Assembly: GCA_021779995.1 (NCBI GenBank)
Contig: JAJXZP010000278.1
Span: 1-37,592, forward strand
Source: a bacterium
GTDB lineage: Bacteria; Spirochaetota; Spirochaetia; Treponematales; Rectinemataceae
Direction of reading: 5' to 3'
Length of the DNA stretch: 37,592 nucleotides
The notes beneath the pieces were generated by a model. The model worked only from the letters and a program-made list of their open reading frames with translations. It did not search any database and was not told the DNA's origin. Positions 24,142 through 34,670 of the stretch are shown here, piece by piece. Position numbers and translations under genes: made by a program. Position 1 is the stretch's first letter. Every line of letters begins with the position of its first letter.

Positions 24142-26748
24142 TCACTCGTAGCTCGCACGGAGGTGCATGAGGCGCAGGGCCGATCGGAGCTTCGAGGCGC
24201 TCGGGGCGCTTTCTCCTTCGGGCGAGATGAAGCGCAGGTGCCTGGTCTCGCCGCCGAGCATGTAGAACCCCGCGTCCTCGAAGCGGCCGGGTATGCCCTC
24301 GGCGCGGGCCTCGATGTAGAAGGCGGGCGCATGCGCGGTGAGCTGGAGCACGGGGCCTCCGGATCTGTCCTCGACATGCGCCTCGATGCGGGGGTCGACG
24401 AGCTTGCAGCGTTTGGGCTCGGTGAGGAAGAGCTGGGCGCGGCGGAGAATCTCGGCGCGGCCGCCGGCCACCGAGGGGACGCCGTCGATGGTGCTGCCCG
24501 CCGGCGCGACGCTGTGGGGCCGAGCGGCGCCCGGACTCCGGGGCAGGCCGGCGCGCACGCCCTCGAGGTGGGCCGCGAGGTACACGTCCTCGGGCCGGCA
24601 GGGCAGGCTGGAGATCGGCATCTTCCAGAGCTCTGTGACTCCCTGCGGGGCCAGGTCGCCGTCGGCGGCTATGTCCATGAGGAGGCTGCCGTCGAAGCGG
24701 CGCAGGCAGAGCACCAGGTCGCCGAGCACGGGGTGCTCGCCTTCGTTGACGCCCACGGCGTGGATCACGCCGTCCTTGACGAAGAGCGAGAGGAAGACGG
24801 GATCGAAGAAGCGCCGCGCCTCGTAGTGGAGCAGCTTCCAGCCGCCGTCGTACTCCAGGCTGGACCAGCTGGCCACCGGCCAGAGGTCGTTGAGCTGCCA
24901 GTACAGGGTGCCCATGCAATGCGGCATGAGCGAGCGCCAGTACGAGACCGCGGTGCGGATGGCCAGGGCCTGCTGGACCTGGCTCAGGTAGAGGGTCTCG
25001 CGGAAGCCCGAGGGCATGCGGAAGTAGCGCGACATGGTCTCGAGGATGATGGTGTTGCCGCGGGGATGCCGCTGGTGGTGCTCCATCGAGGGGCTCGTGA
25101 TGTTGAACTCTCCGGGCGGCAGGAAACTCGCGGCGGTCTCGTAGGACGAGAGCGACTGGAAGCCGAACTCGGAGCAGAAGCGCGGCTTCACGTCCAGGTA
25201 GGCCGAGAAGGGCTTGCCCTCGTGCCAGACGGACCAGTAGTGCATGTCGCCGCGGCTGTCGGAGTGCCAGTTGTCGGAGAAGTCGTTCGGCCCGGCCGAG
25301 GGCGAGGAGGGCCACCAGGGCCTGCCGGGATCGAGCTCGCGGACGACCCTGCCCGCCACGCCCTCGGTGAGCCGGTCGTAGTCGACCACGTAGCGTGTCG
25401 GGTTGGAGCGCGACTCCTCGTACCAGCCGATGGCGCCGAGGGCCTCGTTGTTGCCGCACCAGAGCGCCATGGCGGGGTGGTCCATGAGCCTCCGGACCTG
25501 GTGGCGCAGCTCGGCCTCGACCTCGGCCAGGAACTCGGGCGAGGAGGGGTAGAGGGCGCAGGAGAACATGAGGTCCTGCCAGACGAGGAGGCCGAGCTCG
25601 TCGCAGAGCTCGTAGAAGTAGTCCGACTCGTAGCGGCCCCCGCCCCAGACGCGGAGGCAGTTCATGTTCGCCTCGGCCGCCGAGCGGAGGAGACCCTCGA
25701 CCCTGGCCTTGGACCAGCGCGAGGGGAGGGCGTCGGCGGGTATCCAGTTGGCGCCCTTGCAGAAAATGTCGCGGCCGTTGACGCGGAAGCTCATGCTCTT
25801 GCCGGCCTCGTTCTCCTCGTTGACGAGCTCCAGCTCGCGGAAGCCCACGCGCTTGCGCAGCTCGTGGCCTCCGAGCCCGACTGTCGCGGCGCCTGATGCG
25901 GACCGGCAGGCGACGACGAGGTCGTAGAGCGGCTGGGCGCCGTGCCCCGCCGGCCACCAGGGCTCGACGCCCTCGACCTTCAGCTCCTCGATATGGACCG
26001 AGGGCCCGGCGTCCAGGCTCAGGCGGCGCCTGGCCTTCGCGCCGGCGAGCTCGATCTCGAGCTCGGCCTCCATGGCGGATGGGGCCTCGAGCTCGACCTT
26101 GACCCGGACCGACCAGGATCGCCGCGTGTCGTCGCCCGGCACGGGGTGCGACGAGATGGTGGCGTACTCGATCCGCGGACCCTCGAGAGCGACCAGGGCT
26201 ATGCCCTCGTAGATGCCGCCGGTCATGAGGCAGGGGCCCCAGTCCCAGCCAGCCATGCACTGGGCCTTGCGCAGGAGGTTCCGATGGGGCGAGGAGACCG
26301 GATAGGTCGAGCAGGGCACGGGGTAGCTCAGGGCGGCGGCGGCCTCGGCGGCGGCCTTCTCCGGCGAGCGGATGAGGACCGAGATCAGGTTCGTGCCGGC
26401 CGCGAGGGCGGCTCGGGCGTCGGCGCGGAAGCGGCGGAACATGTTGTCGCCGCGACCCAGAGGGCGGCCGTTGAGCTCGAGCGCGGCCACCGTGTCGATC
26501 GATTCGGCCTCGAGGAAGACCTGCCCGGCCGACAGGAAGTTCTCGGGCAGCTCGAACTCGCGCTCCAGGGCCCAGTCCTCACGGCCGACCCACTGCAGGT
26601 CGAGTTCGTTCATCCCGTAGTAGGGGTCGGGCGCCTCGCCGGAGGCGACGAGAGCGCTCAGAATGTCGCCCGGGATCGAGATGGGGCGGATGCTGCCGTC
26701 CGCCAAACGCCGAAGTCTCCAACTTCCCTCGAGGGCCAACCGTTTCAT
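24142..26748 (-). CDS. GH2 beta-mannosidase
   Basis: Removes terminal beta-mannose from manno-oligosaccharides or from Man-beta-1,4-GlcNAc. The 868-residue length and layout match the family: an N-terminal sandwich domain (WRLRRLADGSI, IPGDILSAL, DNMFRRFRADAR), the TIM-barrel start ANWIPADALPSRW, the acid/base in LWCGNNE (Glu 435) and the nucleophile in FCSEFGF (Glu 527). CMAGWDWGP and LRVWGGGRYESDYFYE are typical of beta-mannosidases rather than beta-galactosidases or glucuronidases. There is no signal peptide, so it works in the cytoplasm on imported sugars. The start at ATG 26748 follows GGAGG. It is divergent from the ROK gene and shares its operator. Confidence 0.93.
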   Translation of the reverse strand: MKRLALEGSWRLRRLADGSIRPISIPGDILSALVASGEAPDPYYGMNELDLQWVGREDWALEREFELPENFLSAGQVFLEAESIDTVAALELNGRPLGRGDNMFRRFRADARAALAAGTNLISVLIRSPEKAAAEAAAALSYPVPCSTYPVSSPHRNLLRKAQCMAGWDWGPCLMTGGIYEGIALVALEGPRIEYATISSHPVPGDDTRRSWSVRVKVELEAPSAMEAELEIELAGAKARRRLSLDAGPSVHIEELKVEGVEPWWPAGHGAQPLYDLVVACRSASGAATVGLGGHELRKRVGFRELELVNEENEAGKSMSFRVNGRDIFCKGANWIPADALPSRWSKARVEGLLRSAAEANMNCLRVWGGGRYESDYFYELCDELGLLVWQDLMFSCALYPSSPEFLAEVEAELRHQVRRLMDHPAMALWCGNNEALGAIGWYEESRSNPTRYVVDYDRLTEGVAGRVVRELDPGRPWWPSSPSAGPNDFSDNWHSDSRGDMHYWSVWHEGKPFSAYLDVKPRFCSEFGFQSLSSYETAASFLPPGEFNITSPSMEHHQRHPRGNTIILETMSRYFRMPSGFRETLYLSQVQQALAIRTAVSYWRSLMPHCMGTLYWQLNDLWPVASWSSLEYDGGWKLLHYEARRFFDPVFLSLFVKDGVIHAVGVNEGEHPVLGDLVLCLRRFDGSLLMDIAADGDLAPQGVTELWKMPISSLPCRPEDVYLAAHLEGVRAGLPRSPGAARPHSVAPAGSTIDGVPSVAGGRAEILRRAQLFLTEPKRCKLVDPRIEAHVEDRSGGPVLQLTAHAPAFYIEARAEGIPGRFEDAGFYMLGGETRHLRFISPEGESAPSASKLRSALRLMHLRASYE

Positions 26749-26786: not shown

Positions 26787-26815
26787 TTGACGAGTCGCCG
26801 GGACCATGCTATACC
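26787..26815 (+). promoter_or_regulatory. sigma-70 promoter of the ROK gene
   Basis: TTGACG (26787-26792), 17-nt spacer, TATACC (26810-26815). The predicted start near 26822 lies inside the left half of the operator, so a bound repressor would block it directly. Confidence 0.65.
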
Positions 26816-26836
26816 ACCTTTGGTTGGGATATTCAA
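26808..26836 (-). promoter_or_regulatory. sigma-70 promoter of the beta-mannosidase gene
   Basis: On the minus strand TTGAAT (26836-26831), 17-nt spacer, TATAGC (26813-26808). Its -10 box shares the TATA at 26810-26813 with the opposite promoter. Its -35 box overlaps the right operator half, so one repressor site could control both directions. Confidence 0.6.
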
Positions 26837-26840
26837 CCAA
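26820..26840. promoter_or_regulatory. probable ROK operator
   Basis: TTGGTTG (26820-26826) and CAACCAA (26834-26840) are perfect inverted repeats around 7 nt. The position covers the start point of the ROK promoter and the -35 box of the beta-mannosidase promoter. The neighbouring ROK regulator with its N-terminal helix-turn-helix is the natural candidate to bind it (inference). Confidence 0.7.
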
Positions 26841-26867: not shown

Positions 26868-28031
26868 ATGCCGAGGGGTGCTAGTTCCGGGCCGCTGACC
26901 GCTACCCGGATAGTTCGGACGATCTGGCTCAATCCCCGCATCTCGAGGATCGGCATAGCCGAGCACCTGGGACTCGACAAGTCGACGGTCACGAACCAGG
27001 TCTCGCATCTCATCGAGCTCGGCATAATAGAAGAGGTGTCCGAGGGGAACGCGGGCGTGCGCGGCGGGCGCCGGCCCATCCACCTCGCGATCAGACGGGG
27101 ATACGGCCGGGTCATCGGCATCGAGATCCAGGTCGAGTCCTATGTCGCCCTCGCCGTCGACCTCGCGGGCTAGGTGCTGGGCGAGCTGCGCGGCGAGACC
27201 AAGGTCGAGGCCGCGAGCTTCTCCGAGACGGTGCTCGACATCATCGCCCTGGCGCGGAAGAAGCTCTGTCCGAAGGGATCGAGGCTCCTGGGTGTCGGGG
27301 TGGGCACGGGCGGCCTTGTCGACCGCAAGAAGGGCCGGCTCCGCTACTCGGTGCCGCTCGGCATCTCCGAGCCCATAGACTTCGAGCGGGAAGTCGCCTC
27401 CCGGCTGGAGGTGCCGTGCCTCATCGAGAACGACGCGAACTGCTGCGCCTGGGGCGAGCTGGCCTTCAACAAGGACGAGGCCCTGCGAGATTTCCTCTTC
27501 GCCCTGGTCGAATACCGCAAGGACCCCATTTCCCTGGGCCAATACGGCGGCCTGGGCGTCGGCTTCGGGGTGTCCTTCGGCGGCAAGGTCTACTCGGGGG
27601 TGCACGGCAACGCGGGCGAGTTCCGCTCGGCCTTCTGCGAAGGCCCCGGCTCCCTGCAGTTCTCGCTGCGACGCGAGGATCTCTGCCGCATCGACCAGGA
27701 CCGGGCTTTGCTCGCCGCCGCCGCGGACGAGCTGGCGCGCAATGCCGCCATGCTCATCAACACGATGGACTTCGACCGTGTCTATATAGGAGGCGACATC
27801 GAGGCGCTCGACATCGATTTCCCCGCCATGCTGAGGCGGCGCCTGCAGGACAACTGGATGTATCCCTTCCCCAAGGACGTCGAGATCCGCTACTCGAGCC
27901 TGGGCGGCAAGGCCGTCGCCTACGGGGCGGCCGGCATGGTCCTGCACGGCCTCATTTCCGAGCGCATGCTGCCGGGGCTCGCGGCCGAGGTCGAAGAGGT
28001 CGCGCCGTCCTGGGTGTCCGACGTTCAATGA
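26868..28031 (+). pseudogene. ROK-family transcriptional repressor interrupted by in-frame TAG
   Basis: Read through, the gene encodes about 387 residues. A winged helix-turn-helix comes first (SRIGIAEHLGLDKSTVTNQVSHL, about residues 25-47). The ROK sugar-kinase-like domain follows, from about residue 85 (VIGIEIQVESYVALAVDLAG), with VGVGTGGLVD, IENDANCCAWGEL and GVGFGVSFGGKVYSGVHGNAGEF. Codon 102 (27171-27173) is TAG, in the same frame on both sides, where the family has a short polar residue between DLAG and VLGELRGE. No frameshift is involved. A GTG follows the TAG directly (27174), so restart is conceivable, but it would separate the DNA-binding domain from the ligand domain inside a beta-hairpin. 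The usual CxCGxxGC zinc motif after GNAGE is absent. It could be a point-mutated pseudogene, a readthrough gene or a sequencing error. The start at ATG 26868 has GAGG upstream. Confidence 0.85.
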
Positions 28032-28101: not shown

Positions 28102-29406
28102 ATGAAACGAATGATGATCGCCGTCATGATGATCGCCGTCATCGCCGCAGGGGTCGTCGCCCAGGAGAAGGTGACGCTCAACGTGTTCAACTACCAGCAG
28201 GCCGACCAGGCCGGTTACCAGCAGGACGTCCAGATCTGGAAGGATTTCCAGACGCAGAACCCGGACATCACCCTCAACATGGAAGTCCTGTTCAACGATC
28301 CCTATCACCAGAAGCTGGAGGCCTACGCCGCGTCCGGCACCCTGCCGGACGTGTTCTACCTGTGGCCGGGCTCGCGGAGCGCCGTCATCCACACGCAGCA
28401 CCTCGCCAAGGATCTCACCAAGCTGCTCGGCAAGGAGTACCTCGAGCGCTTCTCCGCCGCCGCCGTCAATCCCAAGAACCAGCTCGGCGGCTATCTGGCC
28501 GAGCTGCCCCAGTCCTTCACCTACACCTCGGTCATGTACGTCAACAAGAAGCTCCTCGCTGATAACGGCTTCGGCCTGCCCAAGACCTTCGCCGACCTCC
28601 GGAGGATGGTGCCAAGGCTCAAGGCCAAGGGCCTCAATGTCGTCATGCTCCCGGACAAGGACGGCTGGCCCATGCAGTCCTGCCTCTTCTCCACGCTGGT
28701 GGGCCGATTCGGCGGCGACGCCTACATCGACGCCATCCTCGCGGGCAAGGCGAAATTCACGGACAAGCCCTTCGTCGAGGCGCTCAAGGTCGTCGACGAG
28801 CTGTACAGGGACGGGATCATCGCGCGCAGCGACAACCAAGTCGGCTATGGCGAGGGCGCCGGCGCCTTCGCCTCCGGCAAGGCCGCCATCTACATCGACG
28901 GCGACTGGCGCGTCGGTGCGTACATCACCGACAAGGCCTCCGGCAAGGCTCTGATCTCCCCCGAGGCCCAGAAGAACGACTTCGTCCTCCTGCCCTTCGT
29001 GTCGATCCCCGGCGAGAAGTACCACGGCGTGGTCTCCGCGGTCGCGGGCACCGGCTGGGCGATCTCCGGCTCGCTCCCCGAGGGCTCGGCCAAGCTGGCG
29101 GCCGCCGTCCGCCTGATCAAGTACCTCTATTCGCCCGAAGTCCAGTCCATCCGCTTCGCGACCGGCGCCTATGTCCCGACCCTCAAAGGCGTCAAGGCCG
29201 ACGTGGAGCCGCTCATGGCCAAGGTCCCGACTTTCTACGCCGACAATCCGGACACCTGCTACGTGCTCGACGGCGTGCTGGATCCCTCGATCATCACCGT
29301 GCTCAACAACGGCCTCATCGATATAGGGCTCGGCACCGCCACGCCCCAGAAGGTGGCGACCGACGTCCAGAAGGCTTTTGAGAGCTGGAAGGCCTCCCAG
29401 AAGTAG
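28102..29406 (+). CDS. ABC-transporter sugar-binding protein (family 1)
   Basis: Captures an oligosaccharide outside the membrane and hands it to the two permeases that follow. The length is 434 residues. The signal peptide is MKRMMIAVMMIAVIAAGVVA, with cleavage before QEK and no lipobox Cys, so it is soluble or held by other means. The mature start KVTLNVFNYQQ, then LPDVFYLWPGS and a later GKAAIYIDGDWRVGAY are typical of MsmE/MalE-like family 1 proteins. The ATG at 28102 follows AGGAGG at 6-7 nt. A small stem-loop (28061-28087) precedes the ribosome site. It lies 70 nt after the ROK gene and, by context, probably binds a mannose- or GlcNAc-containing oligosaccharide. Confidence 0.9.
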   Translation: MKRMMIAVMMIAVIAAGVVAQEKVTLNVFNYQQADQAGYQQDVQIWKDFQTQNPDITLNMEVLFNDPYHQKLEAYAASGTLPDVFYLWPGSRSAVIHTQHLAKDLTKLLGKEYLERFSAAAVNPKNQLGGYLAELPQSFTYTSVMYVNKKLLADNGFGLPKTFADLRRMVPRLKAKGLNVVMLPDKDGWPMQSCLFSTLVGRFGGDAYIDAILAGKAKFTDKPFVEALKVVDELYRDGIIARSDNQVGYGEGAGAFASGKAAIYIDGDWRVGAYITDKASGKALISPEAQKNDFVLLPFVSIPGEKYHGVVSAVAGTGWAISGSLPEGSAKLAAAVRLIKYLYSPEVQSIRFATGAYVPTLKGVKADVEPLMAKVPTFYADNPDTCYVLDGVLDPSIITVLNNGLIDIGLGTATPQKVATDVQKAFESWKASQK

Positions 29407-29510: not shown

Positions 29511-30635
29511 ATGTCTCGTGCGAAGCGCATCGACCGCGAAGAGGGTCGAGCCTATTGGACGATGGTCCTGCCCGCCTTCGCGGTCTACCTGCTCGTGATG
29601 GCCTTTCCCATCGTCCTCTCCATAATCCTGTCGGTATCCAACTACAATGGGGGCAAGATGTTCGGCGGGCCCAAATGGGGCTTCGCCGGCTTCGGACAGT
29701 ACGCCCGGACGGTCGCCGACCCCCTGTTCTGGAACGCGCTCAAGAACAACGCCTACATCGTCCTCGTTTCCGTGTTCGGACAGCTGCCCCTCGGCTTCAT
29801 CTTCGCCTACATCATCTACCGGCGCATCGTGAAGTGGCCCGGCTTCTGGCAGGGCGTCCTCTACCTGCCCAACATCATATCGATCATCGTCGTCGGCCTG
29901 CTCTGGCAGACGGTCTTCTCGCCGAGCGGTCCGATCGCCGAGTTCATGAACTCGATCTACCACCGCGCCTTCGAGGCCAAGCTCTCGGAGCTGTTCGCCG
30001 CCGCCGGAGGATTCAACGTCACGGACGGACTGGTCAAGAGAATCCTGGACCTCGCCGGCCCCTCGGGCGCGGCGATGTTCGCCAATCCCGTCCCCGACCT
30101 CAAGGACTTCATCCTCTCCTATCCGCAGGGACACCTGGGCCAGGTGATCAACGATCTGGCCAACCTCTTCGCCCAGAAGTGGCGACCCGCTTTCCTGACC
30201 AGGCCCGACCAGGCCATGCTGCCTGTGCTCTTCGTGATCCTCTGGATGTACACGGGTATGTACCTCATCCTCTTCCTCGCGAACATGCAGAAGATCGACG
30301 TCCAGGTGATCGAATCGGCGCGCATCGACGGCGCCAACGAGGCGCAGGTCATGCGCCATATCATCCTGCCCGCCCTTTCCGGAACCATGGTCAACGCGGC
30401 GATCCTGGCGATCTCCGGCTCGCTGTCGAGCTTCGCCCTCATCTTCGCCATGACGGGAGGCGGACCTTCGCACGTGACCGAGATCCTCTCGATATACATG
30501 TATAACAAGGCCTTCCTCGGGAGCCCCAACTTCCCGCTCGCGAATGCCATAGCCCTGATCATGGTAGCCGTCAGCTTCCTTCTCATCGCGCTCACCAAGG
30601 CGCTCGAGAAACGCTACGGCGGGAAGGAGGAGTGA
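29511..30635 (+). CDS. ABC sugar permease, MsmF/MalF type, with extra loop
   Basis: One of two membrane subunits of the sugar importer. The length is 374 residues with about six membrane helices and the cytoplasmic coupling motif ESARIDGANEAQVMRHIILPAL (EAA loop, near residues 262-283), which contacts the ATPase. Typical MsmF-type permeases have about 290-310 residues. The excess is a segment of about 80 residues (145-230) between SPSGPIAEFMNSIYHRAF and LPVLFVILW, which is amphipathic and not repeated. ATG 29511 follows GGAGG. The next permease starts within a few bases of its stop. Confidence 0.9.
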   Translation: MSRAKRIDREEGRAYWTMVLPAFAVYLLVMAFPIVLSIILSVSNYNGGKMFGGPKWGFAGFGQYARTVADPLFWNALKNNAYIVLVSVFGQLPLGFIFAYIIYRRIVKWPGFWQGVLYLPNIISIIVVGLLWQTVFSPSGPIAEFMNSIYHRAFEAKLSELFAAAGGFNVTDGLVKRILDLAGPSGAAMFANPVPDLKDFILSYPQGHLGQVINDLANLFAQKWRPAFLTRPDQAMLPVLFVILWMYTGMYLILFLANMQKIDVQVIESARIDGANEAQVMRHIILPALSGTMVNAAILAISGSLSSFALIFAMTGGGPSHVTEILSIYMYNKAFLGSPNFPLANAIALIMVAVSFLLIALTKALEKRYGGKEE

Positions 30636-30640
30636 AGAGC

Positions 30641-31501
30641 ATGCGCGAGCATCTCACGACGACCGCGCTCGGACGGGCCGCGGGGGCGGCGGCCAAGATC
30701 CTGGCCTACGCCGTCATGATCCTTTTCACCGTCCTGACCCTCTACCCCATCTTCTGGCTCGTCATGAACTCCTTCAAGACCACGAGGGAGTTCCAGGTGA
30801 GCCAGCTGTCCTTCCCCAAATCACCGACCCTCGATAACTTCGCCGGTGCCTGGAAGCTCGGCGATTTCGGCAAGCTCTTCCCCAATTCGATCATCTACAC
30901 CGTGGGGGCGACTGTCGGCATAATCCTGCTCTCGGTCCTCGCCGGTTTCGCCTTCGCCAAGATCAAGTCGAGGGCGACGAAGCCGATCTACAACAGCTTC
31001 GTGATCGGCATCCTGCTCACCATCCAGTCGCTCATGATCCCGCTCTTCCTCGAGGTGAACCTCCTGGGCATCTACGACACGCGCCTGGCCGTCCTCCTCG
31101 TCTACATCGGCGCCGGCCTGCCGATCGGCATCTACCTCGCGACGGAGTTCATCAAGGGCATCCCCAACGCCCTCGTCGAATCCGCCAGGATCGACGGGGC
31201 TGGATACTTCCGCGTCTTCTGGTCGATAATCCTCCCTATGTCGGTGCCCGTGGCGACGACGCTGGCGATACTCAACGTCTCGAACATCTGGAACGAGTTC
31301 GCTCTCATAAACATCCTTGTGTCCAGCACCGACCTTAAATCGCTGCCGCTGGGCATCTACAAGTTCTCCGGCTCGCTGTCGAGCGACTACGGCAAGCAGT
31401 TCGCCGCGCTGACCATCGGGATGGCTCCCATGCTGCTTTTCTATGTGGTCTTCCGGAAGCAGATCACCAAGGGAGTCGCGGCCGGGGCGGTCAAAGGCTG
31501 A
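30641..31501 (+). CDS. ABC sugar permease, MsmG/MalG type
   Basis: The second membrane subunit of the importer, 286 residues and about six helices. The EAA coupling motif is ESARIDGAGYFRVFWSIILP (about residues 181-200). The C-terminal segment FVVFRKQITKGVAAGAVKG is typical of this subunit. I place the start at ATG 30641, eight bases from the GGAGGAG. The in-frame GTG at 30632 overlaps the previous stop but is only a base or so from the ribosome site. No ATP-binding subunit is encoded in the cluster. A shared MsmK-type ATPase encoded elsewhere is likely, as in other systems of this family. Confidence 0.92.
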   Translation: MREHLTTTALGRAAGAAAKILAYAVMILFTVLTLYPIFWLVMNSFKTTREFQVSQLSFPKSPTLDNFAGAWKLGDFGKLFPNSIIYTVGATVGIILLSVLAGFAFAKIKSRATKPIYNSFVIGILLTIQSLMIPLFLEVNLLGIYDTRLAVLLVYIGAGLPIGIYLATEFIKGIPNALVESARIDGAGYFRVFWSIILPMSVPVATTLAILNVSNIWNEFALINILVSSTDLKSLPLGIYKFSGSLSSDYGKQFAALTIGMAPMLLFYVVFRKQITKGVAAGAVKG

Positions 31502-31615: not shown

Positions 31616-31638
31616 GGGGAAGGAAAGGTGTGAACGCT

Positions 31639-32997
31639 ATGCGAACTGATGTGCGGCCGCGCGCTGACGGCCTGCCCGAGGACTTTGTCTGGGGCTGCTC
31701 CACGGCGGCCTACCAGATCGAGGGCTCGACGGGAGCGGACGGCCGCGGGACCTCCATCTGGGACGTCTTTTCGAGGCGGCCGGGCGCCGTGCTCGGGGGC
31801 ATGAACGGGGATCTCGCCTGCGACTCCTACCGGCGCTGGAAGGAGGACGTGGCGTTGCTGCGGGAGCTCGGCGTCGGCGCCTACCGCTTCTCCATAGCCT
31901 GGCCGCGCATCCAGAGCGGCGGCTCGGGATCGCCCAACGCGGCGGGACTGGACTATTACCGCCGCCTCGCCGACGGGCTCCTGGAGGCGGGCATCGAGCC
32001 GGCGGCGACCTTGTACCACTGGGATCTCCCCCAGCCGCTCGAGGACGCAGGCGGCTGGCCCGAGCGCGACACCGCCTACCGCTTCGCCGACTACGCCGGG
32101 CTCGTGCTGCGCGCGCTCGGGGACCGGATCACGACCTGGTTCAGCCTCAACGAGCCCTGGTGCAGCTCGCACCTGGGCTACGCCCTGGGCATCCACGCTC
32201 CGGGCAGGAAAGACCGGGGCGCGGCCTACCGCGCCGTGCACCACCTCCTCCTCGCGCACGGCCTCGCGGTGCGCGCCTGCCGCTCGGCCGCTCCGGGAGC
32301 CCGGATCGGCATCGTGCTCAACACCGCGACGCCTCGGCCGGCCACCCGGCGGCCCGAGGACCGGACGGCGGCCTCGCGGGCCGCGGACGAGCGCACCGCG
32401 CTCTGGCTGGACCCCCTGTACGGCCGCGGCTATCCCGAACGGCACCTCGCCGCCTACCCCGAGGTCTCCATGCCGATCGAGGACGGCGACCTGGCGACCA
32501 TCGCCGAGCCCATGGACTTCCTCGGCGTGAACTACTACTCGGAGGAGGCCGTCGAGGCCGCCCCCGTCGGGCCCGAGCATCCCGAGGGCTTCCGCGTCGC
32601 GCAGAGCTGGCGCGAGAAGACCGAGATGGGCTGGGACATCGCGCCCGAGGGCCTCGGGCGGCAGCTGGAGCATATCGCCTCGACCTGGCCCGTGAAGGCC
32701 CTCTACGTCACCGAGAACGGCGGGGCCTTCCCCGATCTCGCCGGTCCGGACGGCCGCGTGCGCGACCGGGACCGGATCGAGTACCTGAGATCGCACATCG
32801 CGTCCATGGCGGGCGCGGCGTCCCGGGGCGTCCCGGTGCGGGGCTACTTCACCTGGTCGCTCCTGGACAACTTCGAGTGGTCGCACGGCTACTCCAAGCG
32901 CTTCGGCCTGGTAGCCGTCGACCTCGTCACGGGCGAGCGCAGGCCCAAGGACTCGTTCTGGTTCTACCGCGACCTCGTCGCCGGCTTCGGCTCGTGA
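31639..32997 (+). CDS. GH1 beta-glycosidase
   Basis: The protein is 452 residues with the GH1 barrel signature. LPEDFVWGCSTAAYQIEG is the N-terminal motif, WFSLNEPW carries the acid/base (Glu 172) and YVTENGG carries the nucleophile (Glu 359). FTWSLLDNFEWSHGYSKRFGL is the aglycone-side segment. Family members hydrolyse beta-glucosides, beta-mannosides or beta-galactosides. Context favours oligosaccharides entering by the adjacent transporter, but the sugar cannot be read from sequence. There is no signal peptide, so it is cytoplasmic. The start at ATG 31639 is about ten bases from AAAGG; the in-frame GTG at 31630 overlaps that site. Its stop overlaps the GH20 start by four bases. Confidence 0.93.
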   Translation: MRTDVRPRADGLPEDFVWGCSTAAYQIEGSTGADGRGTSIWDVFSRRPGAVLGGMNGDLACDSYRRWKEDVALLRELGVGAYRFSIAWPRIQSGGSGSPNAAGLDYYRRLADGLLEAGIEPAATLYHWDLPQPLEDAGGWPERDTAYRFADYAGLVLRALGDRITTWFSLNEPWCSSHLGYALGIHAPGRKDRGAAYRAVHHLLLAHGLAVRACRSAAPGARIGIVLNTATPRPATRRPEDRTAASRAADERTALWLDPLYGRGYPERHLAAYPEVSMPIEDGDLATIAEPMDFLGVNYYSEEAVEAAPVGPEHPEGFRVAQSWREKTEMGWDIAPEGLGRQLEHIASTWPVKALYVTENGGAFPDLAGPDGRVRDRDRIEYLRSHIASMAGAASRGVPVRGYFTWSLLDNFEWSHGYSKRFGLVAVDLVTGERRPKDSFWFYRDLVAGFGS

Positions 32998-34670
32998 GCG
33001 CCGCGTCTTCACTCGGCCTCGTCCCCGTCCCGCGCTCGCTCGAACTGAGGCCGGGCTTCTGCGAGCTCGGGCTCGGCGCGGTCGTCGAGTGCCCGGAGGA
33101 ATGGGCCGCCGTCGGCCGCGTCGCGGCAGCCTGGCTCGGGAAGTGCCTGGGCGCGCGCTTCGAGGCGACAACCGCGGGTGCCTCCGGTGCATCGGCCGAC
33201 TTGGGCCCGGAAGTCCCGGGCAGCCTCGCCCCCGGCTCCGGGACAGGCGCGGGCACAGGCGGGGAGGGCGGAATCGCCGTGGCGGCGCGCAGTCCTCGCG
33301 AGGCGCGGGCCGCGGCCCCGAGCGGCGGGCCGGCACGGATCCGCTTCGCCGCCGAGGCCGGCTTCGGCGCGGAGGAGTACCGGTTGGAGGCGGGCGAGTC
33401 CCTGATCGAGATTCGCGCCTCTTCCGCCGCCGGCGCCCTGGCCGCGGCCTCCACGCTCTGGCAGCTCGCCCTCTCGCAGGGGAGCGCCCTACCGGCCCTG
33501 ATCGTCGAGGACGCTCCGCGCTTCCCCTGGCGCGGCGCCATGCTCGACACCGCGCGCAACTACTTCCCGATCGAGTTCCTCGAGCGCTTCCTCGACCTCA
33601 TGGCCCTGCACAAGCTCAACCGCTTCCACTGGCACCTGACCGACGACCAGGCCTGGCGCCTCGACCTGGCCGCCCTGCCGGAGCTCGCCGCGCGCGGCTC
33701 GCGCCGGCTCGACCGGCGTTTCAACGTGCCGCGCTGGAAGGAGGGCAGCTACTCCCCGGGCGAGGTGCGACGCATCGTGAGCTTCGCCGCGGAGCGCGGC
33801 ATCGTCGTCGTGCCCGAGATCGAGACGCCCGGCCACGTCACCGCCCTCCTCGCCTCGCATCCCGAGCTCTCCTGCGCCGGGGCCGCCCCCGGCGGCCTCG
33901 CCTTCGAGCCGGAGGACCGCTACGGCGTCTTCGAGGAGCTGCTCTGCGCCGGCAACGAGCAGGTCTTCGATTTGCTCGGCCGCGTGTTCGACGAGCTGGC
34001 AGAGCTCTTCCCCGGACCCTGGGTGCACGCCGGCGGCGACGAGGTGCCCACGGCGCGCTGGTCGGCCTGCCCGAAGTGCCGCGCGCTCATGAGGCGCGAG
34101 GGCCTGCGCGACGAAGGCGGGGCGCTCGAGCCCGAGCTCCTCCAGGGCTGGTTCATGAACCGCGTCGCGGCCCTCCTCGCCGAGCGCGGCAAGCGCCTGG
34201 TGGGCTGGGACGAGATCCTGGAAGGGCGCGTGCGCCAGGATGCCGTGGTGATGTCGTGGCGCGGCATGAGCGGCGGGATCGAGGCGGCGAAGGCCGGCCA
34301 CGAGGTGGTGATGAGCCCCCAGACCCGCTCCTGCTACCTCGACCACAAGCAACTCGACCTGCCCGAAGAGCCCGGCCAGCTCGGCGTCTGCACCCTGCGC
34401 GACTCCTATGCCTTCGACCCGGTCCCGCCCGAGCTCTCGCCGGAGGAGGGGAGCCGCATCCTCGGCGGCCAGGCCAACCTCTGGACCGAGCTCATGTACT
34501 TCGGCCGCCAGGTCGAGTACATGGCCTTCCCCCGGCTCTGCGCGCTCTCGGAGGTTTTCTGGAGCCCGAAGGAGGGGCGCGGCTTCGACGATTTTCTGGG
34601 GAGGATGGAGGTCCACGGCCGCAGGCTCGACCGGCTGGGGGTCAACCGGTACAGGGGAGCCGTCGGCTGA
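32994..34670 (+). CDS. GH20 beta-N-acetylhexosaminidase
   Basis: Releases terminal beta-GlcNAc or GalNAc by substrate-assisted catalysis. The length is 558 residues. The catalytic pair is Asp 349-Glu 350 in HAGGDE. LHKLNRFHWHLTDDQAWRL, VVVPEIETPGHV and GGQANLWTE are the other family blocks. The N-terminal GH20b-like domain (1-170) contains a Gly/Ala/Pro/Ser-rich insertion (about 58-116) of low complexity. There is no signal peptide, so it acts on imported sugar. GTG 32994 overlaps the GH1 stop (GTGA), with no clear ribosome site, so translation is probably coupled. With the beta-mannosidase it suggests a Man/GlcNAc substrate such as an N-glycan core (inference). Confidence 0.93.
   Translation: MSAASSLGLVPVPRSLELRPGFCELGLGAVVECPEEWAAVGRVAAAWLGKCLGARFEATTAGASGASADLGPEVPGSLAPGSGTGAGTGGEGGIAVAARSPREARAAAPSGGPARIRFAAEAGFGAEEYRLEAGESLIEIRASSAAGALAAASTLWQLALSQGSALPALIVEDAPRFPWRGAMLDTARNYFPIEFLERFLDLMALHKLNRFHWHLTDDQAWRLDLAALPELAARGSRRLDRRFNVPRWKEGSYSPGEVRRIVSFAAERGIVVVPEIETPGHVTALLASHPELSCAGAAPGGLAFEPEDRYGVFEELLCAGNEQVFDLLGRVFDELAELFPGPWVHAGGDEVPTARWSACPKCRALMRREGLRDEGGALEPELLQGWFMNRVAALLAERGKRLVGWDEILEGRVRQDAVVMSWRGMSGGIEAAKAGHEVVMSPQTRSCYLDHKQLDLPEEPGQLGVCTLRDSYAFDPVPPELSPEEGSRILGGQANLWTELMYFGRQVEYMAFPRLCALSEVFWSPKEGRGFDDFLGRMEVHGRRLDRLGVNRYRGAVG

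What the first reader, a model, noticed from the sequence alone, without database searches (positions are those of the whole stretch)
27171..27173. Single in-frame TAG interrupts the ROK repressor of the mannoside locus
The frame is intact on both sides of codon 102, and homology continues without a gap. Only one nonsense codon separates a DNA-binding fragment from its ligand domain. The transporter and glycosidases downstream look intact. Possible meanings are constitutive expression after repressor loss, amber readthrough or recoding, restart at the adjacent GTG (TAGGTG), or a base-call error. Loss of the repressor would predict de-repression of a locus whose operator is still perfect.
Basis: seen in the sequence. 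Interest (0 to 1): 0.62.

Follow-up and report, generated by a model that had tools for sequence, protein, structure and literature searches.

The report
Recent stop codon in sugar repressor
In the assembled genome of an uncultured spirochaete, the repressor gene of a conserved sugar-uptake and sugar-digestion locus carries a single premature stop codon; this looks like an ordinary, very recent loss-of-function mutation or a consensus error, not a new genetic code or a split protein.

Summary
A ROK-family regulator gene (26868-28031, +) has an in-frame TAG at 27171-27173 (codon 102), with open, homologous sequence on both sides. All 71 homologues aligned at this column carry a sense codon; the nearest (72% identical) have GAG twice and GGC once, so one substitution suffices. 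The stop lies in a turn between two strands of the ROK domain, not at a domain boundary. The 3' part shows no decay: none of 93 invariant columns is broken and rates are normal. Promoter, operator, transporter and glycosidases look intact. TAG is an ordinary stop here: it ends 270 of 796 long ORFs, RF1 is present, and no CTA-anticodon tRNA or PylS was found. In 1.37 Mb only one other conserved gene (U32 peptidase-like) has a convincing comparable stop. Restart at the adjacent GTG lacks a good ribosome-binding site and would miss two core strands. Best reading: a very recent nonsense mutation inactivating a local sugar repressor, predicted to de-repress the locus. A consensus error in this 334-contig MAG is almost as likely and cannot be excluded without reads. 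Inactivation of a ROK regulator by premature stops is known from evolved Clostridium thermocellum.

The parts
24142..26748 (-). divergent GH2 glycosidase gene with mannosidase-type Ig domains, probably a beta-mannosidase
   Evidence: Pfam Glyco_hydro_2_N2 E=1.3e-44, Ig_mannosidase E=1.5e-12; divergent position next to rok conserved in most relatives
26787..26815 (+). sigma-70-like promoter, TTGACG - 17 bp - TATACC
   Evidence: read directly; TTGAC/TATA(C/G)C-like boxes at the same place in many orthologous loci
26820..26840 (.). operator-like inverted repeat TTGGTTG-GGATATT-CAACCAA, directly downstream of the -10 box
   Evidence: only exact-arm copy in 1.37 Mb of the genome; TTGGTTGN(7)CAACCAA-like element upstream of most orthologous rok genes
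26868..27170 (+). 5' part of the ROK regulator gene: winged HTH plus first two strands of the ROK domain (residues 1-101)
27171..27173 (+). premature TAG, codon 102
   Evidence: sense codon in 71 of 71 homologues
27174..28031 (+). 3' part of the ROK regulator gene, in frame and undecayed (residues 103-387), with its own TGA
   Evidence: Pfam ROK E=3.5e-22; 0 of 93 invariant columns broken; dN/dS about 0.3
28102..29406 (+). sugar ABC transporter substrate-binding protein
   Evidence: Pfam SBP_bac_1 E=1.7e-26; uninterrupted
29511..30635 (+). ABC permease 1
   Evidence: Pfam BPD_transp_1 E=7e-17
30632..31501 (+). ABC permease 2
   Evidence: Pfam BPD_transp_1 E=5.6e-18
31630..32997 (+). GH1 beta-glycosidase
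   Evidence: Pfam Glyco_hydro_1 E=1.1e-147; NCBIfam BGL above its cut-off
32997..34670 (+). GH20 glycosidase (exact start not determined)
   Evidence: Pfam Glyco_hydro_20 E=1.9e-103

Best explanation
A very recent nonsense substitution in the sampled population has inactivated the local ROK repressor of a conserved sugar locus. Shown: one in-frame TAG, no other damage, conserved promoter-operator, intact downstream genes, TAG used as a normal stop. Inferred: translation ends at residue 101, leaving a winged HTH with two strands of an incomplete ROK domain that cannot fold or oligomerise properly; without the repressor the operator at 26820-26840 stays free and the rok-SBP-permease-permease-GH1(-GH20) operon, and perhaps the divergent GH2 gene, are expressed without inducer. 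Premature termination may also lower downstream expression somewhat by polarity (not tested).
For: TAG confirmed in frame. 71 of 71 homologues have a sense codon; the nearest have GAG, one substitution away. No decay after the stop: 0 of 93 invariant columns broken, while other orthologues break up to 3; relative rates equal to sister sequences; dN/dS about 0.2 for the 5' part and 0.3 for the 3' part. TAG is a stop in this genome: 270 of 796 long ORFs, RF1 above cut-off, no CTA tRNA, no PylS. Operator and promoter kept. The break is inside the ROK fold. Precedent: premature stops, frameshifts and an insertion at a ROK gene were selected repeatedly in C. thermocellum, and its deletion raised fructokinase activity (PMC8091016).
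Against: The genome is a metagenome assembly (334 contigs, 88.6% complete) and no reads or second strain are available, so a consensus error is not excluded. In relatives the regulator and the transporter are present or absent together: 14 genomes without the ROK orthologue, 13 without the transporter protein at E<=1e-60 and one with a distant 38% relative only, so no natural precedent of this locus without its regulator was found.
Confidence: 0.5

Rival explanations
1. The TAG is a consensus or assembly error in a draft metagenome genome; the real gene is intact and the repressor works normally.
For: MAG of 334 contigs. The gene has no other lesion and normal rates, exactly what an error in an intact gene would give. 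One further isolated internal stop in a conserved gene (U32-like, L114:3967) with equally intact flanks, as expected from a low background of errors; two in 319,000 codons is a rate errors could produce. TAG is the most likely product of a random base change in this codon usage (0.63).
Against: Two events in 796 long ORFs, and no internal stop in 115 ABC_tran and 51 BPD_transp_1 domain matches, show that the assembly is not generally poor. Nothing in the sequence distinguishes an error from a fresh mutation.
Confidence: 0.42
2. Two-part expression: ribosomes terminate at TAG and restart at the overlapping GTG 27174, giving an HTH fragment and a separate ROK-domain fragment that act together or apart.
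For: GTG follows the stop immediately; the 285-codon frame is open.
Against: Weak Shine-Dalgarno pairing, -2.6 kcal/mol against -6.5 to -11.5 for the operon starts tested. The cut is inside the ROK domain, so the restart product lacks strands 81-87 and 91-98. No orthologue is split.
Confidence: 0.05
3. The TAG is read through by amber suppression or recoding, keeping the repressor functional.
For: The stop is at a tolerant, variable turn position (E, G, A, N, D, K in close relatives); the second internal stop in the genome is also a TAG at a variable position.
Against: TAG ends 270 of 796 long ORFs; RF1 present; 36 tRNA matches, none with anticodon CTA; best PylS match is 20.5 bits against a cut-off of 178. 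TAG is in any case 63% of random nonsense outcomes here, so two TAGs are unremarkable.
Confidence: 0.03

Closest known systems
Clostridium thermocellum Clo1313_1831 ROK regulator, inactivated by premature stops, frameshifts (and a nearby IS insertion) during evolution on glucose or fructose (PMC8091016)
   Same: ROK gene broken by single nonsense substitutions, one of them Glu115*; loss of the regulator raised a sugar-catabolic activity
   Different: There selected in the laboratory and verified by resequencing and deletion; here one draft genome, no expression data, a different regulator and locus
Local ROK sugar regulators of Thermotoga maritima (ManR, BglR, XylR and others; PMC3750489)
   Same: ROK repressor of mannoside or beta-glucoside hydrolases and a sugar ABC transporter
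   Different: Function tested there; here orthology to ManR was not tested and the operator and locus were read only from sequence; the window copy has a stop
Solved ROK regulators XylR (4ija), Lmo0178 (5f7p/q/r), Mlc/NagC-like (3bp8)
   Same: HTH plus ROK domain over the whole alignable length
   Different: Remote in sequence (E 5.7e-17 down to 9e-4); none interrupted

Membership tests
ROK family transcriptional regulator | N-terminal winged helix-turn-helix | tested here: met
   HTH_24 E=9.5e-9, MarR E=3.1e-7 in residues 1-101; helices 8-21, 27-34, 38-51 in the model
ROK family transcriptional regulator | C-terminal ROK (sugar-kinase-like) domain in the same polypeptide | tested here: inconclusive
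   The domain is encoded (Pfam ROK E=3.5e-22) but the stop at codon 102 prevents one polypeptide under the standard code
ROK family transcriptional regulator | canonical CxCGxxGC zinc motif of ROK proteins | tested here: not met
   Read in the translation: the region after GEFRS has one cysteine (SAFCEGPG), and only that C is widely shared in the orthologue consensus; many family members may vary here (motif from general knowledge)
ROK family transcriptional regulator | binds operator and responds to a sugar | not testable with these tools
   Only a conserved operator-like inverted repeat next to the promoter was seen
Nonsense-mutated gene (recent pseudogene) | orthologues intact, single disabling change, frame otherwise kept | tested here: met
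Nonsense-mutated gene (recent pseudogene) | change present in the organism, not only in the assembly | not testable with these tools
   No reads, no second genome of the genus
Stop-codon recoding or amber suppression | TAG rare as terminator, or suppressor tRNA or PylS present | tested here: not met
   270 of 796 TAG ends, RF1 present, no CTA tRNA, no PylS

The most novel reading that the evidence does not exclude
A natural population of this spirochaete has fixed loss of the otherwise universally retained local ROK repressor while keeping promoter, operator, transporter and glycosidases: constitutive use of the sugar locus as an ecological adaptation.
Probability: 0.2. Interest if true: 0.35.

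Novelty: new member of a known kind. Interest (0 to 1): 0.17.

Why it matters
If real, it is a snapshot of regulator loss caught before any further decay, in a locus whose regulator and transporter otherwise occur together in relatives; it predicts constitutive expression. It does not touch the genetic code or translation in general. As a by-product, the comparison defines a conserved ROK operator and divergent GH2 / transporter / GH1 locus across many spirochaete genera.

Tried and rejected
Codon-usage surveys with self-trained seeds drifted to antisense frames, so their candidate lists were discarded; seeding with known window genes fixed this and extended it. Stops reported inside other ROK orthologues (G015, G054, G005) proved to be their natural C-terminal stops or the alignment running past the end; those reported for the G036 paralogue were not seen in the aligned part either. 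A TAG in a BPD_transp_1 match was also the gene's own end. Amber recoding and pyrrolysine were tested and rejected. A literature search on stops in MAGs gave nothing; the Thermotoga ROK paper PMC3553997 is not held.

Full report
What is there. The window is contig C48 of a 3.45-Mb, 334-contig, 88.6%-complete metagenome-assembled genome; named relatives of the gene are all Spirochaetota. The gene at 26868-28031 (+) reads MPRGASSGPL...VDLAG, TAG (27171-27173, codon 102), then VLGELRG... for 285 residues to TGA. Residues 1-101 hit winged-HTH families and the rest hits Pfam ROK; the best solved relatives are ROK regulators such as XylR 4ija and Lmo0178 5f7p.

Comparison. A scan of genome contigs gave 74 loci; 71 of them align at codon 102 and all have a sense codon, mostly E, N, D, A, G, K. 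The nearest orthologues (72%) have GAG, GAG and GGC, so a single substitution can explain TAG. Among 59 related genomes no orthologue is interrupted inside the gene; flagged stops were natural ends or were not seen in the aligned part.

State of the gene. Among 29 orthologues of at least 55% identity, 93 columns are invariant, 66 of them after the stop, and the window breaks none; other orthologues break 0 to 3. Tajima-style counts of unique changes are balanced between the window and its three nearest relatives. dN/dS against the nearest is about 0.2 before and 0.3 after the stop (pairwise, crude). So the stop is either very young or not real. As a rough inference, 66 invariant codons without one replacement allow only about 0.02 neutral substitutions per site since the loss.

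Translation of TAG. With a codon model seeded on known genes, 796 long ORFs in 1.37 Mb end in TGA 425, TAG 270, TAA 101. RF1 scores 508 bits, above its cut-off of 423. Of 36 tRNA matches in the whole genome none has anticodon CTA. The best PylS match is 20.5 bits against a cut-off of 178. Recoding is therefore very unlikely. Most same-frame stop-straddling sites in the survey are neighbouring genes with a start just after the stop; the one other convincing case in a conserved gene is a U32-peptidase-like gene on C55 (L114:3967), where relatives have G, D, A, E or S. With this codon usage 63% of random nonsense changes give TAG, so two TAGs are unremarkable. Domain searches agree that interruptions are rare: 115 ABC_tran matches without an internal stop, and 51 BPD_transp_1 matches whose only TAG is a gene's natural end.

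Restart. GTG 27174 touches the stop, but predicted pairing to the anti-Shine-Dalgarno is -2.6 kcal/mol, against -6.6 (rok), -11.5 (SBP), -10.1, -6.5 and -7.2. The AlphaFold model (mean pLDDT 88.1, read with a residue in place of the stop) places residue 102 in the turn between strands 91-98 and 103-110 of the ROK domain, whose first strand is 81-87. A restarted product would lack two core strands, and the first fragment would keep the HTH but no complete effector domain.

The locus. A TTGACG-17-TATACC promoter at 26787-26815 is followed at once by the inverted repeat TTGGTTG-GGATATT-CAACCAA (26820-26840). Most orthologous rok genes have the same arrangement, with consensus close to TTGGTTGAATAAATCAACCAA, and the window copy is the only exact-arm match in 1.37 Mb. 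Position just after the -10 box is what a repressor site would show (inference). Gene order GH2 divergent / rok - SBP - permease - permease - GH1 is conserved over many genera; the GH2 has mannosidase Ig domains. Fourteen relatives without the rok orthologue also lack the transporter protein (13 with no match at 1e-60, one with a distant 38% relative), so regulator and transporter travel together. Four other ROK genes exist in this genome, but they are remote (28-31% where aligned), so back-up by a paralogue is not indicated.

Mechanism. Most likely the repressor is lost and the locus is de-repressed; shown are the stop, its youth and the intact operator; binding, repression and effector are inferred from the ROK family. 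A direct precedent exists: in evolved C. thermocellum a ROK gene gained premature stops (one Glu115*) and frameshifts, and deletion raised fructokinase activity (PMC8091016). Thermotoga ManR and BglR are comparable local ROK regulators of mannoside and beta-glucoside genes (PMC3750489).

Verdict. Real feature of the sequence, ordinary in kind. Recent nonsense mutation about 0.5, consensus error about 0.42, restart or readthrough together about 0.08. Reads decide between the first two.

Noticed in passing
L114:3967 (genome contig C55, +): Second isolated in-frame TAG in a conserved gene, a U32-peptidase-like protein; relatives have G, D, A, E or S there and are uninterrupted.
   Followed up: yes
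L223:9065 (contig C197, +): TGA inside an integrase-like reading frame that also ends early; looks like a decayed mobile-element gene.
   Followed up: no
window 26820-26840 and upstream of most orthologous rok genes: Highly conserved operator-like element TTGGTTGAATAAATCAACCAA directly after the -10 box; in a few loci (L020, L254, L269, L270) it lies farther upstream or is altered.
   Followed up: partly
window 26868-28031 and orthologues: This ROK subgroup appears to lack the usual CxCGxxGC zinc motif but keeps an invariant N-x-ANCCAW stretch in the alignment.
   Followed up: no
window 32997-34670: A GH20 gene follows GH1 here; in the relatives examined it was matched only once (L266, 41%), though many of those loci end before this position.
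   Followed up: no
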